A stretch of DNA of 64,000 nucleotides, taken from positions 310,001-374,000 of the forward strand of contig NZ_JAFY01000007.1 of assembly GCF_000526375.1 (NCBI RefSeq), written 5' to 3'. The position numbers were made by a program, and so were the translations under genes. The notes beneath the pieces are model-generated. The model ran no database searches. It saw only the letters and a list, made by a program, of their open reading frames with translations, and had not been told where the DNA came from. The stretch comes from Aminiphilus circumscriptus DSM 16581 (GTDB lineage: Bacteria > Synergistota > Synergistia > Synergistales > Aminiphilaceae). Positions 46,977 to 55,549 of the stretch are shown here, piece by piece; position 1 is the stretch's first letter; every line of letters starts with the position of its first letter.

Positions 46977-48188
46977 GTGTTTCATCGAGCCCGGGTGGTA
47001 CTGTTTCTTCTCGCGTTTCTCTGTGTTTCTTTCATTTCAGGACCTGAAACGGGGCTTGCGGTGCCGAAGGGAGTCGATCCCGTCGAAGAGGGATGGATGT
47101 GGCAGATTGCGGTGATTCCGCCTGTCGAGGGGTGGAATTCTCCGCAAGGGGAGTCCGTGTGGATGGCCCTCTCCCTTGCAGCCGGGGAAGTCAACGAGAG
47201 CCACGGTGGAGTCAATGGCCATGATGTCCGCTTTTTTCAGGTGACCCTCCCGGGTCGTGAAGATATTCCTTTGGATTTTCCTGGTTTGCTTCGGGAATGG
47301 AAGACTCGCCGGGTGATCGCGGTGCTCAGCTTCGCCGATGACGAGACGAATCTTTCCCTGATACCGCTCTTGCGGATTGAGGGAATGCCCCTGTTGTTGG
47401 CCTGGGGAGAATGGCTCTCCCTCCGGAACGGTGACGGGCAACCCGAGCCCTTCGTGTTTGCCCTGTCTCTCTTTCGTCGTTTTCGCATCGTGTCCCTTGC
47501 GGAGGAACTCCGGCGTACCATGCCGGAGGGCACGGGGATCGTTCTCGTGGCGGATCGCCTGGATCCGGTGCTGGCTGCATCGAGCGTTCTTTTGGACCGT
47601 CTTCTTCAGGACCGGGGGTTTGTCCCTCTTCCCGTGTGGGTTGCGGGAGCGGGAGACAAGGATGTCCGGTTCCGTCTTCGCGAGGCGGAAAACGCCGGGG
47701 GCCAGATCCTCGTGAGCCTTCTGGACGTGATGGGAACACTCGATCTCTGGCGCCAGATCAGGGAAACTGGAAGTCCGCTTGCGATTTGGTACGGAGGAAG
47801 CATGAGTCCCTTTCTCGCGGATCGAAAAGGATTGGTGCTCAGCGATCAGGACGAGCCGCTCTCGAGAGATCCTTCGTTGCGCGGATTCAGGCTTCGCATC
47901 TGGGATGTCCTCCGGGTCCGCGTGGCCGATGCGGCACTCGCCGCAAGGGCCTACGCACTTGCCCGTTGGTTTCTCCGTGGGCTGGAGGAGACACCTCCCT
48001 CGGATATCGCCAGGCTTCCGGAAAGGCTTGGAAACGCGACGGGCATTCCCTTCGGGGAAGAAATTCTTTCCATCGATCCCGCTACGCATCGTCCCCGGGA
48101 AAGAAAAGTCGCCGTTCTGGAAAGTGACGGAGCTGGATGGTTTTTGCGACGGATTGTTTCTGTTCCGTCCGGTGCTTTCCCGGAGTAA
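46977..48188 (+). CDS. periplasmic-binding-protein-like (type I fold) secreted protein
   Basis: This 403-residue protein has an N-terminal signal region (VVLFLLAFLCVSFISGPETG). The rest resembles LivK-type type-I binding proteins: IAVIPPVEGWNSPQGESVWM with ALSLAAGEVNESHGGVNGHD, and an AVLSFADDETNLSLIPLLRI block. No ABC permease or ATPase genes adjoin it. The GTG start at 46977 has a perfect AGGAGGT six bases upstream. The divergent neighbour is a sodium symporter. A sensor or scavenging role is possible. The family match is moderate, made from pattern only. Confidence 0.65.
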   Translation: MFHRARVVLFLLAFLCVSFISGPETGLAVPKGVDPVEEGWMWQIAVIPPVEGWNSPQGESVWMALSLAAGEVNESHGGVNGHDVRFFQVTLPGREDIPLDFPGLLREWKTRRVIAVLSFADDETNLSLIPLLRIEGMPLLLAWGEWLSLRNGDGQPEPFVFALSLFRRFRIVSLAEELRRTMPEGTGIVLVADRLDPVLAASSVLLDRLLQDRGFVPLPVWVAGAGDKDVRFRLREAENAGGQILVSLLDVMGTLDLWRQIRETGSPLAIWYGGSMSPFLADRKGLVLSDQDEPLSRDPSLRGFRLRIWDVLRVRVADAALAARAYALARWFLRGLEETPPSDIARLPERLGNATGIPFGEEILSIDPATHRPRERKVAVLESDGAGWFLRRIVSVPSGAFPE

Positions 48189-48344: not shown

Positions 48345-48719
48345 ATGAACCTGAAAACCGTGGCAGAATTGCTCGGAGCCGACGTTCTCTGCATCTCCGG
48401 GTGCTTGGAGGAAGTGGAGGTGGATCACGCATACGCGGCGGATCTCATGAGCGATGTCCTTGCCTTTGCATGCCCCGGCTCACTCTTACTCACGGGGCTC
48501 ACCAACGTGCAGATCATCCGTACCGCCCAGATGCTCGATATTCCCGCAGTGGTCTTCGTCCGAGGCAAGCGCCCCCAGGAAGAGGTGGTGAAGCTTGCCG
48601 AGCAGGTAGGGATATCTCTTCTGGTTTCCGCGAAAAGCATGTACGAGAGCTGTGGCCTTCTCTACAAAGCCGGTGTTTTTCCCTGCGATATTCCTGAGCG
48701 GGGAGGGGAATCCTCTTGA
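48345..48719 (+). CDS. DRTGG-domain protein, first of two
   Basis: This 124-residue protein consists of one DRTGG domain, a fold related to CBS-linked and phosphotransacetylase-type modules and of unknown ligand. Pattern: MNLKTVAELLGADVLCISGC, then AADLMSDVLAFACPGSLLLT, NVQIIRTAQMLDIPAVVFVR and ISLLVSAKSMYESCGLLYKA. The second DRTGG protein of the operon (50496-50831) has the same layout. GGGGGG precedes the ATG. Its stop overlaps the next gene's TTG start (TTGA), so translation is coupled. Confidence 0.82.
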   Translation: MNLKTVAELLGADVLCISGCLEEVEVDHAYAADLMSDVLAFACPGSLLLTGLTNVQIIRTAQMLDIPAVVFVRGKRPQEEVVKLAEQVGISLLVSAKSMYESCGLLYKAGVFPCDIPERGGESS

Positions 48720-49183
48720 CCGACCCGTATGTGGTGGAGTTCACGGTCGAGGGAGAGGATTTTCTCGCCGCAGGCGAGGCGTCGAACAACATCAAGGAGA
48801 CGCTGAAGATGCTCGGTGTTCCGTCAAGCATCTGCCGGAGGGCGGCGGTGATCACCTACGAGGCGGAGATGAATCTTGTCATTCATGCCCGGGGTGGTAC
48901 ACTGCGTGCGGAGATTACCCATGAGCGGATTGAACTCACTGCACGTGACGAAGGGCCCGGCATTGCGGATGTGGATCTGGCCATGCGCGAAGGGTACTCC
49001 ACGGCACCGGATCACGTGAGGGAACTTGGGTTCGGTGCGGGCATGGGATTGCCGAACATCAAGCGTAACGCGGACGCGTTGTATATTGATTCCGTCGTCG
49101 GAAGAGGGACGGAGCTTCGTGCGGTCATTTATTTCGATGGGGAGGACTCCTCGGGAGGTGGAAAAAGGAGGGCAATGTTGTGA
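48716..49183 (+). CDS. HATPase-type ATP-binding protein (RsbW/anti-sigma-like)
   Basis: This 155-residue protein is a stand-alone GHKL ATPase domain. The N box is YEAEMNLVIHARGG (Glu and Asn ligands of Mg-ATP), the G1 box ARDEGPGIADVDLA and the G2 box LGFGAGMGLPNIKRNADAL. Serine kinases of the RsbW/SpoIIAB type have this layout. No dimerisation/phosphoacceptor domain of a histidine kinase is present. TTG 48716 is the start, coupled to the previous gene; the stop overlaps the next start (GTGA). A target for the kinase is not visible, unless it is one of the DRTGG proteins. Confidence 0.85.
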   Translation: MTDPYVVEFTVEGEDFLAAGEASNNIKETLKMLGVPSSICRRAAVITYEAEMNLVIHARGGTLRAEITHERIELTARDEGPGIADVDLAMREGYSTAPDHVRELGFGAGMGLPNIKRNADALYIDSVVGRGTELRAVIYFDGEDSSGGGKRRAML

Positions 49184-50499
49184 TTTCAGGTGTCAAGATT
49201 CTGGATTCCGTTTGCAAGGGATGTGTGAACTGCATCAAGTCCTGTCCCACCGAAGCGATCCGCGTGGTGGACGGACTCGTACACATTATCCCTGAATTGT
49301 GCATCAGTTGTGGAGAGTGCTTGCGTACCTGTCGAGAAAAGGCTCTTGGCCTCGATGAGGACGATTGGGGTGTCCTTCGTGCTTACGGTTCCCCGATCCT
49401 TTTAGCGGATCCCACGTTTTATGTGCAGTTCGGTAGTTACTGGCGGCCTTCTCTTGTTCGCGAGGCGCTGCTGGGAGTCTGGGGTGTCGAGGATCTCGCG
49501 GAGGAGATGAGCGTTGCCTTCGACTTGGTGGCCTATGCGAATTGCCGTGCCATCGAGGAGACACCGCCCGACCGGCTTCCGCTCATTTCCACCTATTGCC
49601 CGGCCATGATCCGTCTCATCAGAGCGCGCTTTCCCGAACTTTTGGGACACTTGATTCCCTCGGAATCGCCCCTGGAGATTGCCGCGCTTCTCCATCGAAA
49701 GAACAAGGGGGATGTCCGTCCTGTCACCCTGGCCGCTCCCTGCCCGGCCAAAATAGCCATGGTCCGGGAACCCGTGGGAAGAGAAACGAGCATCGTCACT
49801 CACGCGGTATCTGTCCGTCGCGTGGTTCGAGATCTCCTCGCCGCTGGTTCCAGAGTGGAGCAGGATGTCCCTGCCCTGGAGAACAAACGATGGATTCTCT
49901 GGGGACTCCGTGGAGGAGAATCGCGGCACATGGCGCAATTTTCCCGCCGCCGTCCCTTGAGGACGCTTGCTGTGTCCGGATTGCGCAATAGCATCGACCT
50001 TTTGCGGGAGCTGGAGTTGGGACGTCTTCAAAACATTGACTTCGTGGAATGCCGTGTCTGTGACCTGGGGTGTATTGGAGGAATCGGCAATGCGGAATCA
50101 CGGTTTCTCGCCCATCTCCGTCTGAAAAACCTTCCCCAGAAGTGGCGTCTTTCTCCCGAGGAGAAAAGAACCGTGGAGGAACTTTACGAAAGCGGCATAT
50201 GGCGGCTCGAGAAGGCCGTTGAGCCGCTGGAGAGGCTTCCTCTCGGGGAAGACCTCGCGGAATCCATGGCCAAACTGAAGCGGCTCAAGTCCATCTATGC
50301 GGAACTTCCTCATCTCGATTGCGGCGCCTGTGGGCGCCCCTCCTGTCATGCTCTGGCGGAGGATGTCGTCCGGGGTGACGCGGAGATGACGGACTGTGTT
50401 TTCAAACTGCGGGATCGCATCGCTTCGCTGGCGGAGGAGATCACGAATCTCTCGAAGAATGTGCCTCACACACTGCGGACGAGGAGCGACGAACGATGA
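49180..50499 (+). CDS. ferredoxin plus [FeFe]-hydrogenase-like C-terminal domain plus Fe-S domain
   Basis: This 439-residue soluble protein has three parts. Residues 12-22 and 41-51 hold two CxxCxxCxxxC ferredoxin clusters. Residues of about 65-310 resemble the hydrogenase catalytic domain: STYCPAMIRL (C140), AAPCPAKIAM (C188) and VECRVCDLGCIGG (C294, C298) line up with the L1, L2 and L3 motifs, so all four cubane-ligand cysteines are kept. The proton-relay Cys before C140 is Tyr139. Residues 381-406 form a CxxCx4Cx16C Fe-S domain (PF04060-like). Catalysis is doubtful; sensing or electron transfer is likelier. Similar proteins accompany hydrogenases in Thermotoga. Confidence 0.85.
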   Translation: MISGVKILDSVCKGCVNCIKSCPTEAIRVVDGLVHIIPELCISCGECLRTCREKALGLDEDDWGVLRAYGSPILLADPTFYVQFGSYWRPSLVREALLGVWGVEDLAEEMSVAFDLVAYANCRAIEETPPDRLPLISTYCPAMIRLIRARFPELLGHLIPSESPLEIAALLHRKNKGDVRPVTLAAPCPAKIAMVREPVGRETSIVTHAVSVRRVVRDLLAAGSRVEQDVPALENKRWILWGLRGGESRHMAQFSRRRPLRTLAVSGLRNSIDLLRELELGRLQNIDFVECRVCDLGCIGGIGNAESRFLAHLRLKNLPQKWRLSPEEKRTVEELYESGIWRLEKAVEPLERLPLGEDLAESMAKLKRLKSIYAELPHLDCGACGRPSCHALAEDVVRGDAEMTDCVFKLRDRIASLAEEITNLSKNVPHTLRTRSDER

Positions 50500-50831
50500 C
50501 CATCGGAGAGATTCTTGCTCATCTCGGTGCGGACGTGGCGAATATTGGAGACGAGGAGCGGGAGGTGACCAGGGGAATCGTGGGCGACCTCCTGAGTTAT
50601 GTCATGGGCACGGCTCCGGAGAATGCCCTGTGGATCACGATCCACGGCCATCTGAACGTCGCTGCCGTGGCGGTCCTGCGGGACATTCCCTGTGTGATTC
50701 TTGCGGGAGGAAGAACGCCGAATCCTGATTTTCTCGAGCGCTGTCGCGCGGAGGGCATCGCCGTGGGGTTGGTGAAGGATACCGCCTTCGATGTATGCGG
50801 GAAACTGTGGGAGATCGGCTTGAGGGGTTGA
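50496..50831 (+). CDS. DRTGG-domain protein, second of two
   Basis: This 111-residue protein repeats the domain of 48345-48719: MTIGEILAHLGADVANIGDE, then VGDLLSYVMGTAPENALWIT, NVAAVAVLRDIPCVILAGGR and IAVGLVKDTAFDVCGKLWEI. Both end in a short helix with a conserved Cys (ESCGLL in the first, DVCGKL here). The ATG overlaps the previous stop (ATGA), so translation is coupled. The PHP gene starts four bases after its stop. Confidence 0.8.
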   Translation: MTIGEILAHLGADVANIGDEEREVTRGIVGDLLSYVMGTAPENALWITIHGHLNVAAVAVLRDIPCVILAGGRTPNPDFLERCRAEGIAVGLVKDTAFDVCGKLWEIGLRG

Positions 50832-50835
50832 CGCC

Positions 50836-51762
50836 ATGGAGAACGCTGGAACCGGGGGCCGTCGCGCCCGATCGGAAACGGAAGTGCATGCTCCGGAGAG
50901 CGGACATCCGGCGAATTCCGGAGCGAGCACGTCCCCAGTCGCGGGAGCAACGGCTCTTTTGCTGCGGCGGTTTCGCGTCGATCTGCATGTGCATTCCGTT
51001 CTCTCCCCCTGTGCGGAACTGGAGATGGGTGCGCGGGAGATCGTTCGCCGGGCCAGTAGGGAGGGAATCGCCCTTCTGGCCCTTACGGACCACAACGCGG
51101 TGGCCAATGTCCCAGCCCTGGCGGAGGCCGCGGAGGCCGAAAGGGAGAGGCTGCGCGCCTCCGGTGTGGATGACGGAGGTATTCCCAGGATTCTCTGTGG
51201 TGTGGAGGTGCAAACCGAGGAGGATATTCACCTGGTGGCTCTCTTCCGGAGTGCGGAGGATGGCTTTGTTTTTCAGGAATGGCTTTGGAAATCTCTTCCC
51301 TCCCGTGCCAACGATCCTGACATTTTCGGGTATCAGTTGATCATCGACGGAAAAAACGCGGTGCTTGACCAGGTGGAGACGCTCCTCGTCCAGGGGGTTT
51401 CCCGTTCCGTGGATGAAGTGATCGCGGAAATCCGCCGCAGAGGAGGGCTTTCCTTTCTCGCGCATGTGGATCGCCCCGGCTTTTCCTATGTGGCGGTGCT
51501 CGGCTCCGTGCCGGAGGACCTTGCTGTGGATGCGGTGGAACTGTCCCGGCGTCTTTCCGCCGAGGAGGCGCTTGTCTGGAGGGATCGGTTGGGAAGCAGG
51601 ACGATCCTTCGTTCTTCCGACGCGCACCGTCTTGAGGATCTCCGTCGGGAGCACTGCATGGAACTTCTTCTCGCGGAGCCGACCTTCGACGAAGTCGCCC
51701 TCGCCCTGCGAAACGAGGCAGGACGGTGTGTCCTCTGGCCCTGGGAGGAAACGCCGCCCTGA
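50836..51762 (+). CDS. PHP-domain metal-dependent phosphoesterase
   Basis: This 308-residue protein has a PHP domain from about residue 46. Metal-binding motifs are all present: FRVDLHVHSVLSPCAELEMG, ALLALTDHNAVANVPALAEA, LCGVEVQTEEDIHLVALFRS, GGLSFLAHVDRPGFS and ILRSSDAHRLEDL. The family hydrolyses phosphate monoesters or nucleotides of unknown identity here. The first 40 residues are poorly conserved, so a later start is possible. It is the last gene of the DRTGG-HATPase-Fe-S operon. PHP proteins also neighbour [FeFe] hydrogenase gene sets in other anaerobes. Confidence 0.87.
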   Translation: MENAGTGGRRARSETEVHAPESGHPANSGASTSPVAGATALLLRRFRVDLHVHSVLSPCAELEMGAREIVRRASREGIALLALTDHNAVANVPALAEAAEAERERLRASGVDDGGIPRILCGVEVQTEEDIHLVALFRSAEDGFVFQEWLWKSLPSRANDPDIFGYQLIIDGKNAVLDQVETLLVQGVSRSVDEVIAEIRRRGGLSFLAHVDRPGFSYVAVLGSVPEDLAVDAVELSRRLSAEEALVWRDRLGSRTILRSSDAHRLEDLRREHCMELLLAEPTFDEVALALRNEAGRCVLWPWEETPP

Positions 51763-51783: not shown

Positions 51784-52410
51784 TTACTTCGGTGTGTGAC
51801 GGGAGGCGAGTTCCCGCCACAGTTCTTCGAGGGGAATGTCCAGGGCGAGGAGCCCCACCAGAAGGTGATACAGAAGGTCCGACGCCTCGTACACCGCGCC
51901 TTCGCGGTCCTGGAGCGCCACGGCGAGAGAGGTTTCCAGGCCTTCCTCGCCGATCTTCTGGGCTACCCGGGGAATTCCCTTACCGAGAAGGCGGGCGGTG
52001 TAACTTTCCTCGGGTGAATCGTTTTTCCGTTTCTGCAGATAGCGCCAGAGGGTTCCGAGAAAGGTGGGATCTCCCGGAGGCGTTCCCCAGAGAGGGTTGT
52101 GGAAGCAGCTTTCCTTTCCCGTGTGGCACGCCGGTCCCGCCGGTTCCACAAGTGCCAGGATCGTGTCTCCGTCGCAGTCCGCCCGAAGCTCCCGGAGCCT
52201 CTGCGTGTTTCCGCTGGTCTCTCCCTTGTGCCATCTCCCTCCGCGGGATCGGCTGAAAAAGACCATCTCTCCCGTCGCGACGGTCTCTTCGAGCGCCGCG
52301 CGATCCGCCCAGGCCATCATGAGCACTTTCCCGGAAAGGGCGTCCTGGACGATGACCGGGATGAGTCCCTTCTCGTCAAAACGCAGTGTGTCCCAATGCG
52401 ACGTCGTCAT
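51784..52410 (-). CDS. hisIE: phosphoribosyl-AMP cyclohydrolase / phosphoribosyl-ATP diphosphatase
   Basis: This 208-residue fusion carries out steps 2 and 3 of histidine synthesis. The HisI domain shows [40 protein letters not shown] and a zinc-binding region with [20 protein letters not shown] followed by CHTG and SCFHN. The HisE domain has [20 protein letters not shown] and [20 protein letters not shown]. Its stop is only 21 bases from the end of the convergent PHP gene. A 364-base gap separates it from hisF. Confidence 0.95.
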
Positions 52411-52774
52411 GAGTCTCGTTCATTTCCTTTCATCGCGGATTCTCCACGGAAACTCCGAATGAACCGCTTCCGCGTCGTATGCCTTCTGTTTCGGATAAGA
52501 GAGATGTGCTGGTCTTGGCTTAGTAAGCCAAACGCAACAGCGTGGCGCTCGCTCGCGAGAAATTTCCGCTGGCGTGTCTGACTGAGGCGTTTTCACGGTC
52601 TCTTGTCGCGAAGCGCTACGGTTCTCTCCCGTTCGTCCCGGATGAGAAACCGAATGTCCTTTCCCTTTGAGAGGAGCTCCAGAAGCTCCCCGCCTTGACC
52701 TCCATGTTAGCGGAAGCAGCCTGTTCCACTTTGAGAGGAACGCCAGAAGCTTCCCGACCCATCAGTGTTCCCGT
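52411..52774. other. 364-base gap between hisIE and hisF
   Basis: No gene is recognised on either strand. The region contains a short palindrome TTGGCTTAGTAAGCCAA at 52515-52531 and an imperfect direct repeat (52659-52693 and 52722-52757). It interrupts an otherwise gapless operon. It may hold a promoter for hisIE, but none stands out. Confidence 0.5.
52659..52757 (+). repeat. pair of imperfect ~35-bp direct repeats
   Basis: Copy 1 (52659-52693) and copy 2 (52722-52757) share CTTTGAGAGGA, then CCAGAAGCT and CCCG, with single changes between. Their centres are about 63 bases apart. Function unknown. Confidence 0.55.
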
Positions 52775-53548
52775 TCAGACAAATGCTCCGTCGTTCTCCA
52801 GCCTCACGGCAAATCCTTTCCGCCGGAGTGCTTCCTTCACTTGGGAGATGCGGAGATGTCCGTAGTGAAAGATCGACGCGGCGAGCACCGCATCGGCTCC
52901 CGCCGCGAGAGCTTCGGCCAGATGTTCCGTCGTGCCGGCGCCTCCCGAGGCGATGACGGGAACCCGCACGGCTCGGGTCACGGCGGCGAGCAGTTCCGTG
53001 TCGTATCCAGCGGTGGTGCCGTCACGGTCCATGGAAGTGAGGAGAATTTCTCCTGCCCCGAGCCGTGCGCCTTCCCGGATCCAGTCGAGGCAATCCATGC
53101 CGGTGGCGGTCCTGCCACCCTCCACGTACACTTCCCAGGAGTCGCCCTTTTTTCGGACATCCACGGCGAGAACCACCGCTTGTCTTCCGAGGACGCGCGC
53201 GCAGGCGGTGAGGAGATCCGGAGTGCGCACCGCGGCGGTGTTGACGGAGACCTTGTCCGCACCGAGGCCGATGATCTCCACCGCATCCTCCGGCGTGGAA
53301 ATGCCTCCCCCCACGGTGAAGGGAATGGAGAGACGGTCTGCAACGGCGGTGACCCAGTCGCGCATGGTCTTGCGCCGTTCCGTCGAAGCGGAGATGTCGA
53401 GGAAGACGAGTTCGTCCGCTCCCTCTTCCATGTACAGGGCCGCGAGCGTCGCAGGGTCTCCCGCATCGCGGAGATCGACGAAATTGACGCCCTTCACCAC
53501 CCTGCCGTTCTTCACGTCCAGGCAGGGGATCACTCGGGATGTCAGCAT
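52775..53548 (-). CDS. hisF: imidazole glycerol phosphate synthase, cyclase subunit
   Basis: This 257-residue TIM barrel closes the imidazole ring with ammonia from HisH. Landmarks: [20 protein letters not shown] (catalytic Asp), [40 protein letters not shown] (second catalytic Asp) and [23 protein letters not shown] 53548 is chosen; it overlaps the 3' end of hisA by seven bases, so the two are coupled. The open frame extends upstream but lies inside hisA. Confidence 0.97.
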
Positions 53549-54261
53549 AGGCGCCACCGTTGCAGCGCCGTGGCAAGATCGAACTCGCCTTCGTAGAGTG
53601 CCTTGCCTACCACGGCTCCCGTCAAGCCTGCCTCGTCCAGAAGATGGACGTGCCGTTCCGACCAGATGCCCCCCGCGGCAATGAGACGAGCTTCGGGACA
53701 GAGACGCAGCAGCCGCTGGTAGAGCGGGAGATCCGGGCCTTCGCCGGTGCCGTCTCTGTCCACGGCGGTGACGAGAAATTCCTCGTATCCCAGGTCGAGG
53801 AGGCGCCGCAGGAGCACCTCCGGAGTGAGGGTGCTCGTCCTGGTCCAGCCGGACACGGCCACCCATTCGCCCTTCACGTCCACTGTAGGCAAGAGACGAT
53901 TTCCGAATTCCTCCCGGCAACGGCGGGCGGTTTCCTCATCCTTCGCGAGAAGACTCCCCACCATAGCTCGGGAAGCTCCGGCGTCGAGCGTGGCGGCGAT
54001 ATCCTCGGGGCGCCGAAGTCCGCCTCCGTACTGCACGGAGAGCCCGAGTGCCGCCAGGTCCGGAAGCAGGTCCAGATGAACCGGTGCACCTCTCCGAGCC
54101 CCCTCGAGATCCACCACGTGAAGCCATGTCGCTCCCGCCTCGGCGAAGGATGCCGCCGTACCCAGCGGGTCGTCGCCGTACTCACTTCGGCGGCTGAAAT
54201 CCCCCTTGGTGAGACGTACCACCTTGTGTCCGTAGAGATCGATGGCCGGATAGACGATCAT
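53542..54261 (-). CDS. hisA: phosphoribosylformimino-AICAR isomerase
   Basis: This 239-residue TIM barrel isomerises ProFAR. It starts [20 protein letters not shown] with the catalytic Asp, and continues [40 protein letters not shown] and [20 protein letters not shown] carry the phosphate loops and the second Asp. The start ATG at 54261 overlaps the hisH stop. Length equals the family norm. Confidence 0.96.
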
Positions 54262-54983
54262 GTCGGGCCTCCTTGTCCGGTTGATCCGTGTTTGGAAGCG
54301 TTGTTCGTCCTCGCGGAAATGTTCCCCGCCCCGGGAGCGGAGACGCCGTGACGGAGAAAGGCGAGCAGACGTCCCAGAAACGCCACACCTTCGAGGCCGC
54401 TTCGCTCGGGATGAAACTGGCATCCCGCGACGCGCCCGCCGAGAACGACCGAAGGGAACTGAAGGTCGTCCAGCCGGGTCGTTGCCGCCGCATGGGCACT
54501 TTCCCGCAGCGCGAAGCTGTGGACGAAGTAGAAGAAACTGCCCGACGGTACGAGAGCGTGCATGTTCTCTTTGCCGGGAAGCCAGGTGATGCTGTTCCAT
54601 CCCATGTGAGGCACCTTGGAGACACCTTCGAGGGGATGGACGACACCGGAAAGGAAACCGAGTCCGGAAGTGTTTCCGTCCTCCATGCTCGCCTCGCAGA
54701 GAAGTTGCATGCCGAGACAGATCCCCAGAAGCGGCCGTTCCGCATCGACCCATCGGCGCAGTGCCTTTTCCCATCCCTTTCTCCGGAGCAGTTCCATGGC
54801 GGGAGGAAAAGCTCCGACGCCCGGAAGAATCAGAATATCCGTGTCGTCCGGACGTAGTTCGCCCGGGGAGGAAAGGATCCGGGACGGCAGACGCAGGCGG
54901 ACGAGGGCCCGGTGGAGGTTGCCGAGGTTTCCCGCACCGTAATTGATGACGCCGCAGCGGAGTGGCGCGGATTCTTCCGTCAT
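54258..54983 (-). CDS. hisH: imidazole glycerol phosphate synthase, glutaminase subunit
   Basis: This 241-residue class-I glutaminase supplies ammonia to HisF. Seen are GVINYGAGNLGNLHRALVRL, the ILPGVGAFPPAMELLR loop, the nucleophile Cys in PLLGICLGMQLLCEASMEDG and the catalytic His and Glu in GCQFHPERSGLEGVAFLGRL. The last 30 residues after the usual end are Gly/Ala/Asn-rich and extend into the hisA start. It overlaps hisB by four bases. Confidence 0.95.
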   Translation of the reverse strand: MTEESAPLRCGVINYGAGNLGNLHRALVRLRLPSRILSSPGELRPDDTDILILPGVGAFPPAMELLRRKGWEKALRRWVDAERPLLGICLGMQLLCEASMEDGNTSGLGFLSGVVHPLEGVSKVPHMGWNSITWLPGKENMHALVPSGSFFYFVHSFALRESAHAAATTRLDDLQFPSVVLGGRVAGCQFHPERSGLEGVAFLGRLLAFLRHGVSAPGAGNISARTNNASKHGSTGQGGPT

Positions 54984-55549
54984 AGCCAGATCCCTTTCGT
55001 GCTTCCCGGTTCCTCCGTTGGAACGAGAGCCTGTCGGAGTGCTCTGCCGACACCCTTGAAGACCGCTTCCGCCAGGTGGTGGGCATTGTCAACCGCGAGG
55101 GCGCGCACGTGGAGCGTAGTGCGTGCTTCACGACAGAACCCCCTCCAGAATTCCTCCACGAGTTCCGTGTCGAAATCCCCGCACCGGGGAGAGGGGAAGG
55201 GCGCATCCCATCCGAGGTGGGATCTGCCACTCAGGTCAACCGCGACGAGAACCAGAGTCCCGTCCATGGGGAGGGCGCACCAGCCGTATCGGGTCCGCCC
55301 GGTTCCGTTCCGGAGTTCCTCGAGGAGCGCCTGCCCCAAAGTGATGCCGAGATCCTCCGTGAGGTGATGAGCGTCCACCTGCAGATCTCCACGGGCGGTC
55401 ACGGCGAGCGTCCACCCTGCATGATGGGCGAGGAGTTCCAGCATGTGGCCGAGGAAGCCGCAGGGCACGTCGATGGCGCCGGTGCCGGGTTCAAGGGAGA
55501 GGGAAAGAGCGATTTCCGTCTCCCGGGAGCGTCGCTCACGCCGAGTCAT
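54980..55549 (-). CDS. hisB: imidazoleglycerol-phosphate dehydratase
   Basis: This 189-residue enzyme makes imidazole acetol phosphate. It has both manganese-binding motifs: DAHHLTEDLGITLGQALLEE and VDNAHHLAEAVFKGVGRALR. The N-terminal motif usually reading GFFDHML is GFLGHMLELLAHHAGW, with Asp replaced by Gly. The ending, STKGIWL, is typical. It is the single-domain form without the phosphatase half of E. coli HisB. It overlaps hisG by 14 bases. Confidence 0.95.
   Translation of the reverse strand: MTRRERRSRETEIALSLSLEPGTGAIDVPCGFLGHMLELLAHHAGWTLAVTARGDLQVDAHHLTEDLGITLGQALLEELRNGTGRTRYGWCALPMDGTLVLVAVDLSGRSHLGWDAPFPSPRCGDFDTELVEEFWRGFCREARTTLHVRALAVDNAHHLAEAVFKGVGRALRQALVPTEEPGSTKGIWL

What the first reader, a model, noticed from the sequence alone, without database searches (positions are those of the whole stretch)
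48345..51762. Compact DRTGG-HATPase-hydrogenase-like-DRTGG-PHP operon as a candidate redox signalling module
Five genes overlap or nearly overlap: two DRTGG-domain proteins, an RsbW-like ATPase, a protein with hydrogenase-type cluster motifs, and a PHP phosphoesterase. No catalytic hydrogenase subunits lie beside them. Related genes accompany [FeFe] hydrogenases in Thermotoga and clostridia, but their function is not established. A model: the Fe-S protein senses H2 or redox state, the ATPase phosphorylates a partner, and DRTGG/PHP proteins handle a nucleotide or phosphate ligand.
Basis: partly seen in the sequence, partly recalled or inferred. Interest (0 to 1): 0.78.

Follow-up and report, generated by a model that had tools for sequence, protein, structure and literature searches.

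The report
Group D hydrogenase-like redox signalling operon
Five tightly overlapping genes encode a widely conserved, probably redox-sensing module built around a "sensory" hydrogenase relative; a sixth, often distant gene travels with it, and many bacteria keep the module although they appear unable to make the iron cofactor that such a protein would need to sense hydrogen.

Summary
In detail: D1-HAT-FES-D2-PHP (48345-51762, +) is a translationally coupled operon in a Synergistota genome. D1, HAT and FES lie in this order at all 122 homologous loci examined (Synergistota, Clostridia, one Parabacteroides record); 113 have all five genes in order. FES is not an unclassified Fe-S protein: it has every sequence hallmark I could test of a Group D (M2e) [FeFe] hydrogenase, the putative H2-sensor group of TamHydS.

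Three things appear new against the open literature I could search. (1) A second ATPase, HAT2 (probably the "HisK" of the A. mobile NiFe-HydABCSL operon), is present in 59 of 61 FES+ genomes but 4 of 60 without FES; in 37 of the 59 the two are unlinked, so HAT2 looks like a sixth component. (2) The module adjoins NuoE-HAT2-trx-NuoF cassettes whose catalytic subunit is [FeFe] hydrogenase, [NiFe] hydrogenase or a formate-dehydrogenase-like protein. (3) 29 of 61 FES+ Synergistota genomes lack detectable HydE, HydF and HydG, so FES there probably has no Hyd-built diiron site and cannot be the assumed H2 sensor.

Best model: an Fe-S redox sensor coupled to GHKL ATPases and a PHP phosphoesterase, tuning NAD/ferredoxin bifurcating enzymes. 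The signalling steps are inferred.

The parts
48345..48719 (+). D1: stand-alone DRTGG-domain protein, 124 aa; invariant D33, M35-S-D-V-L39, T50-G-L52, N54, R59-T-A61, R73, K75
   Evidence: PF07085, E 6e-5, below cut-off; 53-56 homologues; AlphaFold pLDDT 86; Foldseek best 3l2b/3l31/2ioj DRTGG domains, E about 1e-7.
48716..49183 (+). HAT: GHKL ATPase resembling anti-sigma F factor SpoIIAB; N-box E49xExN53, G1 D78xGxG82, G2 GFGAGMG 105-111 nearly invariant, so ATP binding is expected
   Evidence: PF02518; TIGR01925 E 5e-11, far below cut-off; SpoIIAB chains 1th8/1til; 120 homologues.
49180..50499 (+). FES: Group D-type [FeFe]-hydrogenase-like protein, 439 aa; 8 N-terminal Cys (two 4Fe-4S), 4 [4Fe-4S]H Cys (C140, C188, C294, C298), C-terminal Cx2Cx4Cx16C (C381/384/389/406), E247 and E290; no PAS domain
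   Evidence: all 16 Cys, E247 and E290 invariant in 61 sequences; monophyletic, 100/100; AlphaFold pLDDT 94.7; Foldseek: [FeFe] hydrogenases.
50496..50831 (+). D2: second stand-alone DRTGG-domain protein, 111 aa, apparent paralogue of D1 (GDLLS...WIT...N..AVA..L)
   Evidence: 111 homologues.
50836..51762 (+). PHP-domain phosphoesterase; probable metal ligands H51, H53, D85, H86, E124, H132, H210, D262, H264 at least 97% conserved; the first ~45 residues may be a mis-called start
   Evidence: PF02811; 109 homologues.
46983..48188 (+). Periplasmic-binding-protein-like gene (Peripla_BP_6, weak) 157 bp upstream; lineage-specific neighbour in Synergistota, not part of the core module; start codon uncertain
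   Evidence: directly upstream, same strand, in about half of the 40 Synergistota loci; absent from the Clostridia loci.

Best explanation
The operon encodes five parts of a conserved, probably six-part signalling module. FES, a Group D hydrogenase-type protein, is the redox-sensing subunit: electrons from reduced ferredoxin (or from H2, where an H-cluster is made) enter its [4Fe-4S] chain and change its conformation. Two GHKL ATPases read this out: HAT (SpoIIAB-like, in the operon) and HAT2 (encoded elsewhere in this genome, inside a [NiFe] bifurcating-hydrogenase operon). The two small DRTGG proteins act as ligand-binding or phosphorylatable adaptors, and the PHP protein removes the phosphate or degrades the nucleotide signal. 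The likely output is adjustment of NAD/ferredoxin electron-bifurcating enzymes (HydBC-type NuoE/NuoF cores), whatever their catalytic metal. In Synergistota the protein most likely works as a [4Fe-4S]-only redox sensor. Shown: operon, conservation, Group D hallmarks, HAT2 co-occurrence, neighbourhood types, absence of detectable maturases in 29 genomes. Inferred: sensing, kinase and phosphatase chemistry, and the target.
For: D1-HAT-FES order in 122/122 loci and all five genes in order in 113/122. HAT2 in 59/61 FES+ against 4/60 FES- Synergistota genomes, genus level 28/28 against 3/21 (p about 1e-10); 37 of the 59 pairs are more than 10 kb apart or on different contigs. Neighbouring cassettes NuoE-HAT2-trx-NuoF followed by HydA in Clostridia, by NuoG-HoxY-HoxH-HoxW in L068-L070, and by a pyridine-nucleotide-reductase plus molybdopterin protein in L067. 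The window's own genome has HAT2 inside such a [NiFe] operon on contig C5. HAT keeps all ATP-binding motifs and PHP its metal ligands. No DNA-binding or sigma factor is a conserved neighbour among the families I identified, which favours a post-translational output. No HydE, HydF or HydG over cut-off in 29 FES+ genomes.
Against: No biochemical evidence for any step. No obvious phosphoacceptor (STAS protein or response regulator) is conserved with the module, so HAT and HAT2 may use ATP conformationally, as chaperones or assembly ATPases. Co-occurrence was not corrected for phylogeny beyond counting genera. In many Synergistota, including this one, the module is not adjacent to any bifurcating enzyme. 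All 121 genomes carry a NuoF-type gene, so the tie to bifurcating cores rests on neighbourhood, not on presence/absence.
Confidence: 0.55

Rival explanations
1. Classical Group D reading: FES carries a full H-cluster and is a true H2 sensor; the other genes relay the H2 signal.
For: Group D hallmarks are conserved, including E247/E290, the equivalents of E252/E289 that TamHydS needs for H2 turnover (PMC10407848). Clostridial genomes with FES mostly have HydF (18 of 22) and Ala at the C299 position, as TamHydS does. Semisynthetic TamHydS turns over H2 (PMC8163306). The window genome itself has HydE, HydF and HydG, so an H-cluster there is not excluded.
Against: 29 FES+ Synergistota genomes, in 13 genera and 7 families, lack all three maturases. 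The C299 position is Tyr in all 40 Synergistota loci and Phe in Parabacteroides. The K358 equivalent is Lys in 22/22 maturase-positive but Arg or Met in 7/18 maturase-negative loci.
Confidence: 0.25
2. Assembly/repair module: the two GHKL ATPases, DRTGG and PHP proteins act as chaperones that load or repair cofactors of the bifurcating HydABC-type complex, with FES as Fe-S scaffold or electron donor.
For: HAT2 lies inside hydrogenase operons; the A. mobile authors suggested maturation and/or regulation for the accessory genes HydD, HydP and HisK (PMC8880783). The unit is conserved whatever the catalytic metal, as expected for work on the shared NuoE/NuoF core.
Against: Many species with HydABC or other NuoF cores lack the module (e.g. 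most of genus g6), so it is not required for assembly. Redox-tuned hydrogenase folds and PHP phosphoesterases are not typical of known Fe-S assembly systems (own knowledge).
Confidence: 0.15
3. Nucleotide second-messenger system: PHP or a HAT protein makes or breaks a nucleotide (such as Ap4A or pAp) that the DRTGG proteins bind, with FES as redox switch.
For: The D1 model's closest solved structures include the CBS/DRTGG regulatory region of C. perfringens pyrophosphatase, known to bind Ap4A (own knowledge). PHP is nearest by profile to nucleotide-acting PHP enzymes, weakly and far below cut-offs.
Against: No synthetase-like gene in the module. DRTGG ligand binding is unknown for stand-alone domains, and in the pyrophosphatase the nucleotide sits mainly in the CBS domains (own knowledge).
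Confidence: 0.15

Closest known systems
Group D (M2e) [FeFe] hydrogenase, TamHydS of Thermoanaerobacter mathranii (PMC8163306, PMC10407848, PMC13104023)
   Same: Two N-terminal 4Fe-4S clusters, H-domain with the four [4Fe-4S]H cysteines, C-terminal Cx2Cx4Cx16C, no PAS, C299 lost, glutamates equivalent to E252 and E289, a HATPase gene next door, frequent linkage to group A hydrogenase.
   Different: C299 position is Tyr in Synergistota (Ala in TamHydS); M353 position is mostly Ala in this lineage, not only Ser/Thr; many Synergistota carriers lack HydEFG. The DRTGG/PHP genes and the unlinked HAT2 partner are not mentioned in the Group D papers I could read.
Group C (M2f) sensory [FeFe] hydrogenase (TmHydS; R. 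albus HydS locus)
   Same: Same Fe-S plus H-domain plus PF04060 architecture, low-activity sensory proposal.
   Different: Group C has a C-terminal PAS domain, a different neighbourhood (SpoIIE-type phosphatase, L075/L076) and forms a separate branch.
Electron-bifurcating NiFe-HydABCSL operon of Acetomicrobium mobile (PMC8880783) and the Bfu family (PMC9304861)
   Same: The NuoE-HAT2-trx-NuoF-NuoG-HoxY-HoxH-HoxW cassette in L068-L070 and L169 matches that gene content; HAT2 corresponds to HisK.
   Different: Those papers do not describe the D1-HAT-FES-D2-PHP module or HAT2's co-inheritance with it (no such terms found).
SpoIIAB/RsbW-type anti-sigma kinases
   Same: HAT shares the GHKL fold motifs including the N-box glutamate and asparagine.
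   Different: No sigma factor and no STAS anti-anti-sigma partner conserved in the module; best family score is far below the anti-sigma F cut-off.
DRTGG regulatory domains (CBS-DRTGG pyrophosphatase, HPr kinase N-terminus, AF1212)
   Same: Fold of D1.
   Different: Here the domain is stand-alone and present as two paralogues.

Membership tests
Group D (M2e) [FeFe] hydrogenase | Two N-terminal [4Fe-4S] motifs, H-domain, C-terminal Cx2Cx4Cx16C, no PAS | tested here: met
   C12/15/18/22, C41/44/47/51, C381/384/389/406; protein ends at residue 439 with no PAS match. Definition from PMC8163306.
Group D (M2e) [FeFe] hydrogenase | Four [4Fe-4S]H cysteines kept, C299 replaced | tested here: met
   C140, C188, C294, C298 invariant in 61 sequences; C299 position Y, A or F.
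Group D (M2e) [FeFe] hydrogenase | Conserved glutamates E252 and E289 (TamHydS numbering), E252 specific to Group D | tested here: met
   Window E247 (in GGE) and E290 invariant in 61/61. Correspondence is by motif spacing, not by direct alignment with TamHydS. Definition from PMC10407848.
Group D (M2e) [FeFe] hydrogenase | M353 replaced by Ser or Thr | tested here: inconclusive
   Ser/Thr in the clostridial and Parabacteroides sequences shown; in Synergistota mostly Ala, also Ser/Thr. The source calls it well conserved, not absolute.
Group D (M2e) [FeFe] hydrogenase | Clusters in phylogeny with TamHydS, apart from groups A, B, C | tested here: inconclusive
   FES is one branch, support 100/100, apart from A, B and C representatives; the TamHydS sequence itself could not be fetched, and groups E-G were not sampled.
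[FeFe] hydrogenase (catalytic or H2-sensing) | Diiron H-cluster built by HydEFG | not testable with these tools
   Genomic proxy only: HydE, HydF, HydG present in the window genome but all undetected in 29 of 61 FES+ genomes.
SpoIIAB/RsbW anti-sigma factor | Score over the family cut-off and a sigma factor or STAS partner | tested here: not met
   TIGR01925 42.7 bits against a cut-off of 135; no such partner among conserved neighbours identified.
DRTGG domain protein | DRTGG profile and fold | tested here: met
   Profile just below cut-off; fold match E about 1e-7 to DRTGG structures. D2 fold not modelled.
PHP phosphoesterase | Multinuclear metal-binding His/Asp/Glu set | tested here: met
   PF02811 over cut-off; ligand residues at least 97% conserved in 109 homologues.

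The most novel reading that the evidence does not exclude
A Group D hydrogenase-type protein has been retained, repeatedly and together with its whole six-protein module, as a [4Fe-4S]-only redox sensor without any diiron cluster, controlling bifurcating NAD/ferredoxin enzymes whatever their catalytic metal. 'Sensory [FeFe] hydrogenase' would then be a misnomer for this branch, and H2 sensing may be secondary in the group as a whole.
Probability: 0.5. Interest if true: 0.75.

Novelty: new variant of a known kind. Interest (0 to 1): 0.62.

Why it matters
What Group D [FeFe] hydrogenases do in the cell is an open question; published work rests on one semisynthetic protein, and its H-cluster is justified by the general conservation of HydEFG (PMC10407848). 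These data give that question a concrete partner list (D1, HAT, D2, PHP, HAT2), a likely target class (bifurcating NuoE/NuoF enzymes), and natural test cases: species that keep the module but have no detectable HydEFG, where H2 sensing by an H-cluster should be impossible.

Tried and rejected
Chance co-occurrence: rejected by gene order in 122 loci. Selenocysteine or pyrrolysine in FES: the in-frame TGA seen in the search table for L008 and L010 is the normal stop codon at the end of the match. A tie to [FeFe] hydrogenase alone: within Synergistota FES is not enriched with HydF (32/61 against 40/60) but is with the Hox-type [NiFe] subunit (32/61 against 5/60). IMG/VR contigs: no relative found. 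Plasmid records: group C loci served as outgroups; two records labelled Subdoligranulum and Parabacteroides plasmids carry the module but are probably misassigned chromosome pieces. Solved structures of D1 by sequence: nothing. AlphaFold coordinates could not be read, so I could not test whether Tyr139 blocks the diiron pocket. TamHydS, T. maritima and A. woodii sequences could not be reached. Literature: no open paper found linking DRTGG or PHP proteins to this system; key subscription papers (Calusinska 2010; Schuchmann & Mueller 2012; Schut & Adams 2009) were not readable, so novelty is provisional.
Full report
OBSERVATION. Five ORFs, 48345-51762 on +, lie exactly as described. Three junctions share 4 nt (TTGA, GTGA, ATGA), D2 and PHP are 4 nt apart, and purine-rich Shine-Dalgarno-like stretches precede the starts, as in a translationally coupled operon. 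No sigma-70-type promoter or terminator stands out from shuffles in a way that defines its ends.

DOMAINS. D1 and D2 match DRTGG just below the cut-off; a confident D1 model has the DRTGG fold. HAT is a GHKL ATPase nearest SpoIIAB in the PDB, with N, G1 and G2 boxes nearly invariant in 120 homologues. PHP keeps its metal-ligand residues in 109 homologues. FES has two 4Fe-4S motifs, a diverged Fe_hyd_lg_C domain and a PF04060 cluster domain, and its model is an [FeFe] hydrogenase fold.

WHAT FES IS. Group D (M2e) proteins are defined in PMC8163306 by two N-terminal 4Fe-4S motifs, an H-domain, a C-terminal Cx2Cx4Cx16C motif, loss of C299 and no PAS domain; PMC10407848 adds two conserved glutamates, E252 and E289. 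FES meets all of these: 16 cysteines plus E247 and E290 are invariant in 61 sequences. FES sequences form one branch with 100/100 support apart from A, B and C representatives. I assign it to Group D with about 0.9 confidence; the TamHydS sequence itself could not be aligned, and groups E-G were not sampled.

NEIGHBOURHOOD. In Synergistota, 40 loci were taken: D1, HAT and FES were in order in all 40. One genome-contig scan gave 80 further loci, all clostridial-type because the query's first row was a Subdoligranulum sequence; two plasmid-collection records added Subdoligranulum and Parabacteroides. Over these 122 loci, 113 have all five genes in order. A sample of 299 Bacillota genomes has 117 with a full-strength FES match, E 1e-100 or better, counted from the table; these are well separated in score from the 560-650 aa group C proteins.

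SIXTH COMPONENT. Many loci carry a second GHKL ATPase, HAT2. It sits between NuoE and a thioredoxin-like 2Fe-2S protein in bifurcating-enzyme operons and corresponds by position to HisK of the A. mobile NiFe-HydABCSL operon, which its authors assumed, with HydD and HydP, to act in maturation and/or regulation (PMC8880783). Across 121 Synergistota genomes HAT2 is present in 59 of 61 with FES and 4 of 60 without (tabulated); by genus, 28 of 28 against 3 of 21. In 37 of the 59 the two genes are unlinked. The counts share ancestry and were not corrected on a tree. In the window genome HAT2 lies on contig C5 within NuoE-HAT2-trx-NuoF-NuoG-HoxY-HoxH-HoxW.

NOT ONLY [FeFe]. Beside the module, the NuoE-HAT2-trx-NuoF cassette is followed by HydA (47 of 82 non-Synergistota loci, 12 more with NuoF and HAT2 only), by a [NiFe] hydrogenase in L068, L069 and L070, and in L067 by a protein with pyridine-nucleotide reductase and molybdopterin domains, formate-dehydrogenase-like; L071 has the same arrangement by similarity but was not scanned.

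NO MATURASES. Of 61 FES+ Synergistota genomes, 29 have no HydF or HydG and none of the 29 appears among HydE-positive genomes. They span 13 genera in 7 families and include single-contig, 99% complete genomes (G024, G048). In most of them FES is the only Fe_hyd_lg_C protein; G030, G044, G087 and G105 also have a group C-type one. 26 of the 29 have a Hox-type [NiFe] large subunit. A caution: the HydG search also missed several genomes that have HydA, HydE and HydF (e.g. G026), so no single maturase search is reliable; the claim rests on all three being absent. The window genome has all three, so there an H-cluster remains possible. Two sequence signs fit loss of the diiron site: a bulky aromatic at the C299 position in Synergistota and Parabacteroides (Ala in Clostridia), and loss of the K358-equivalent lysine in 7 of 18 maturase-negative but 0 of 22 maturase-positive loci. 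The second reflects perhaps two evolutionary events, so it is suggestive only.

MECHANISM. Committed model: FES senses electron pressure through its Fe-S chain; HAT and HAT2 convert this into a phosphorylation or conformational signal; DRTGG proteins are adaptors; PHP resets the system; the output acts on bifurcating NuoE/NuoF enzymes. Shown are the operon, its conservation, the Group D hallmarks, HAT2 co-inheritance and the neighbourhoods. The chemistry and target are inference. That the six genes form a functional unit I hold at about 0.95; that it is a redox-signalling system for these enzymes, 0.55.

NOVELTY. Group D proteins, bifurcating operons and HisK/HAT2 are each known. The six-part unit, its indifference to the catalytic metal, and Group D proteins in genomes without HydEFG were not found in the open papers searched, but important subscription papers could not be read. 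I rate it a new variant of a known kind.

Noticed in passing
window 46983-48188 (+): A secreted Peripla_BP_6-like protein lies directly upstream of D1 in about half of the 40 Synergistota loci, with no transporter genes evident beside it here; possibly an extra, lineage-specific input.
   Followed up: partly
genomes G030, G044, G087, G105: Group C-type (580 aa, PAS-length) [FeFe] hydrogenase proteins also occur in genomes without detectable HydE, HydF or HydG, so the maturase-free pattern may extend beyond Group D.
   Followed up: partly
genomes G010, G026, G039, G041, G053, G077: HydE and HydF, and in most a catalytic-type HydA, are present but no HydG was found at E 1e-50, including one single-contig genome (G026). 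Either HydG is very diverged there or the search missed it.
   Followed up: no
L177-L180, L182-L184, L186-L190, L193, L194, L196: HAT2 is a stand-alone gene away from any NuoE/NuoF cassette in many Synergistota, yet still co-occurs with FES.
   Followed up: partly
L164 4873-6942 (-), genome G041: A 690-aa diverged Fe_hyd_lg_C protein (L1 motif SQPCP) on a long branch outside A-D representatives; group not assigned.
   Followed up: no
window 51784-55549 (-): Histidine biosynthesis genes (HisIE, HisF, HisA, HisH, HisB by sequence) run convergently just downstream of the operon.
   Followed up: no
L073, L074 (PLSDB records OY725842.1, NZ_OY725779.1): Records called plasmids carry core genes (gyrA in L074) and are probably chromosome fragments.
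   Followed up: no
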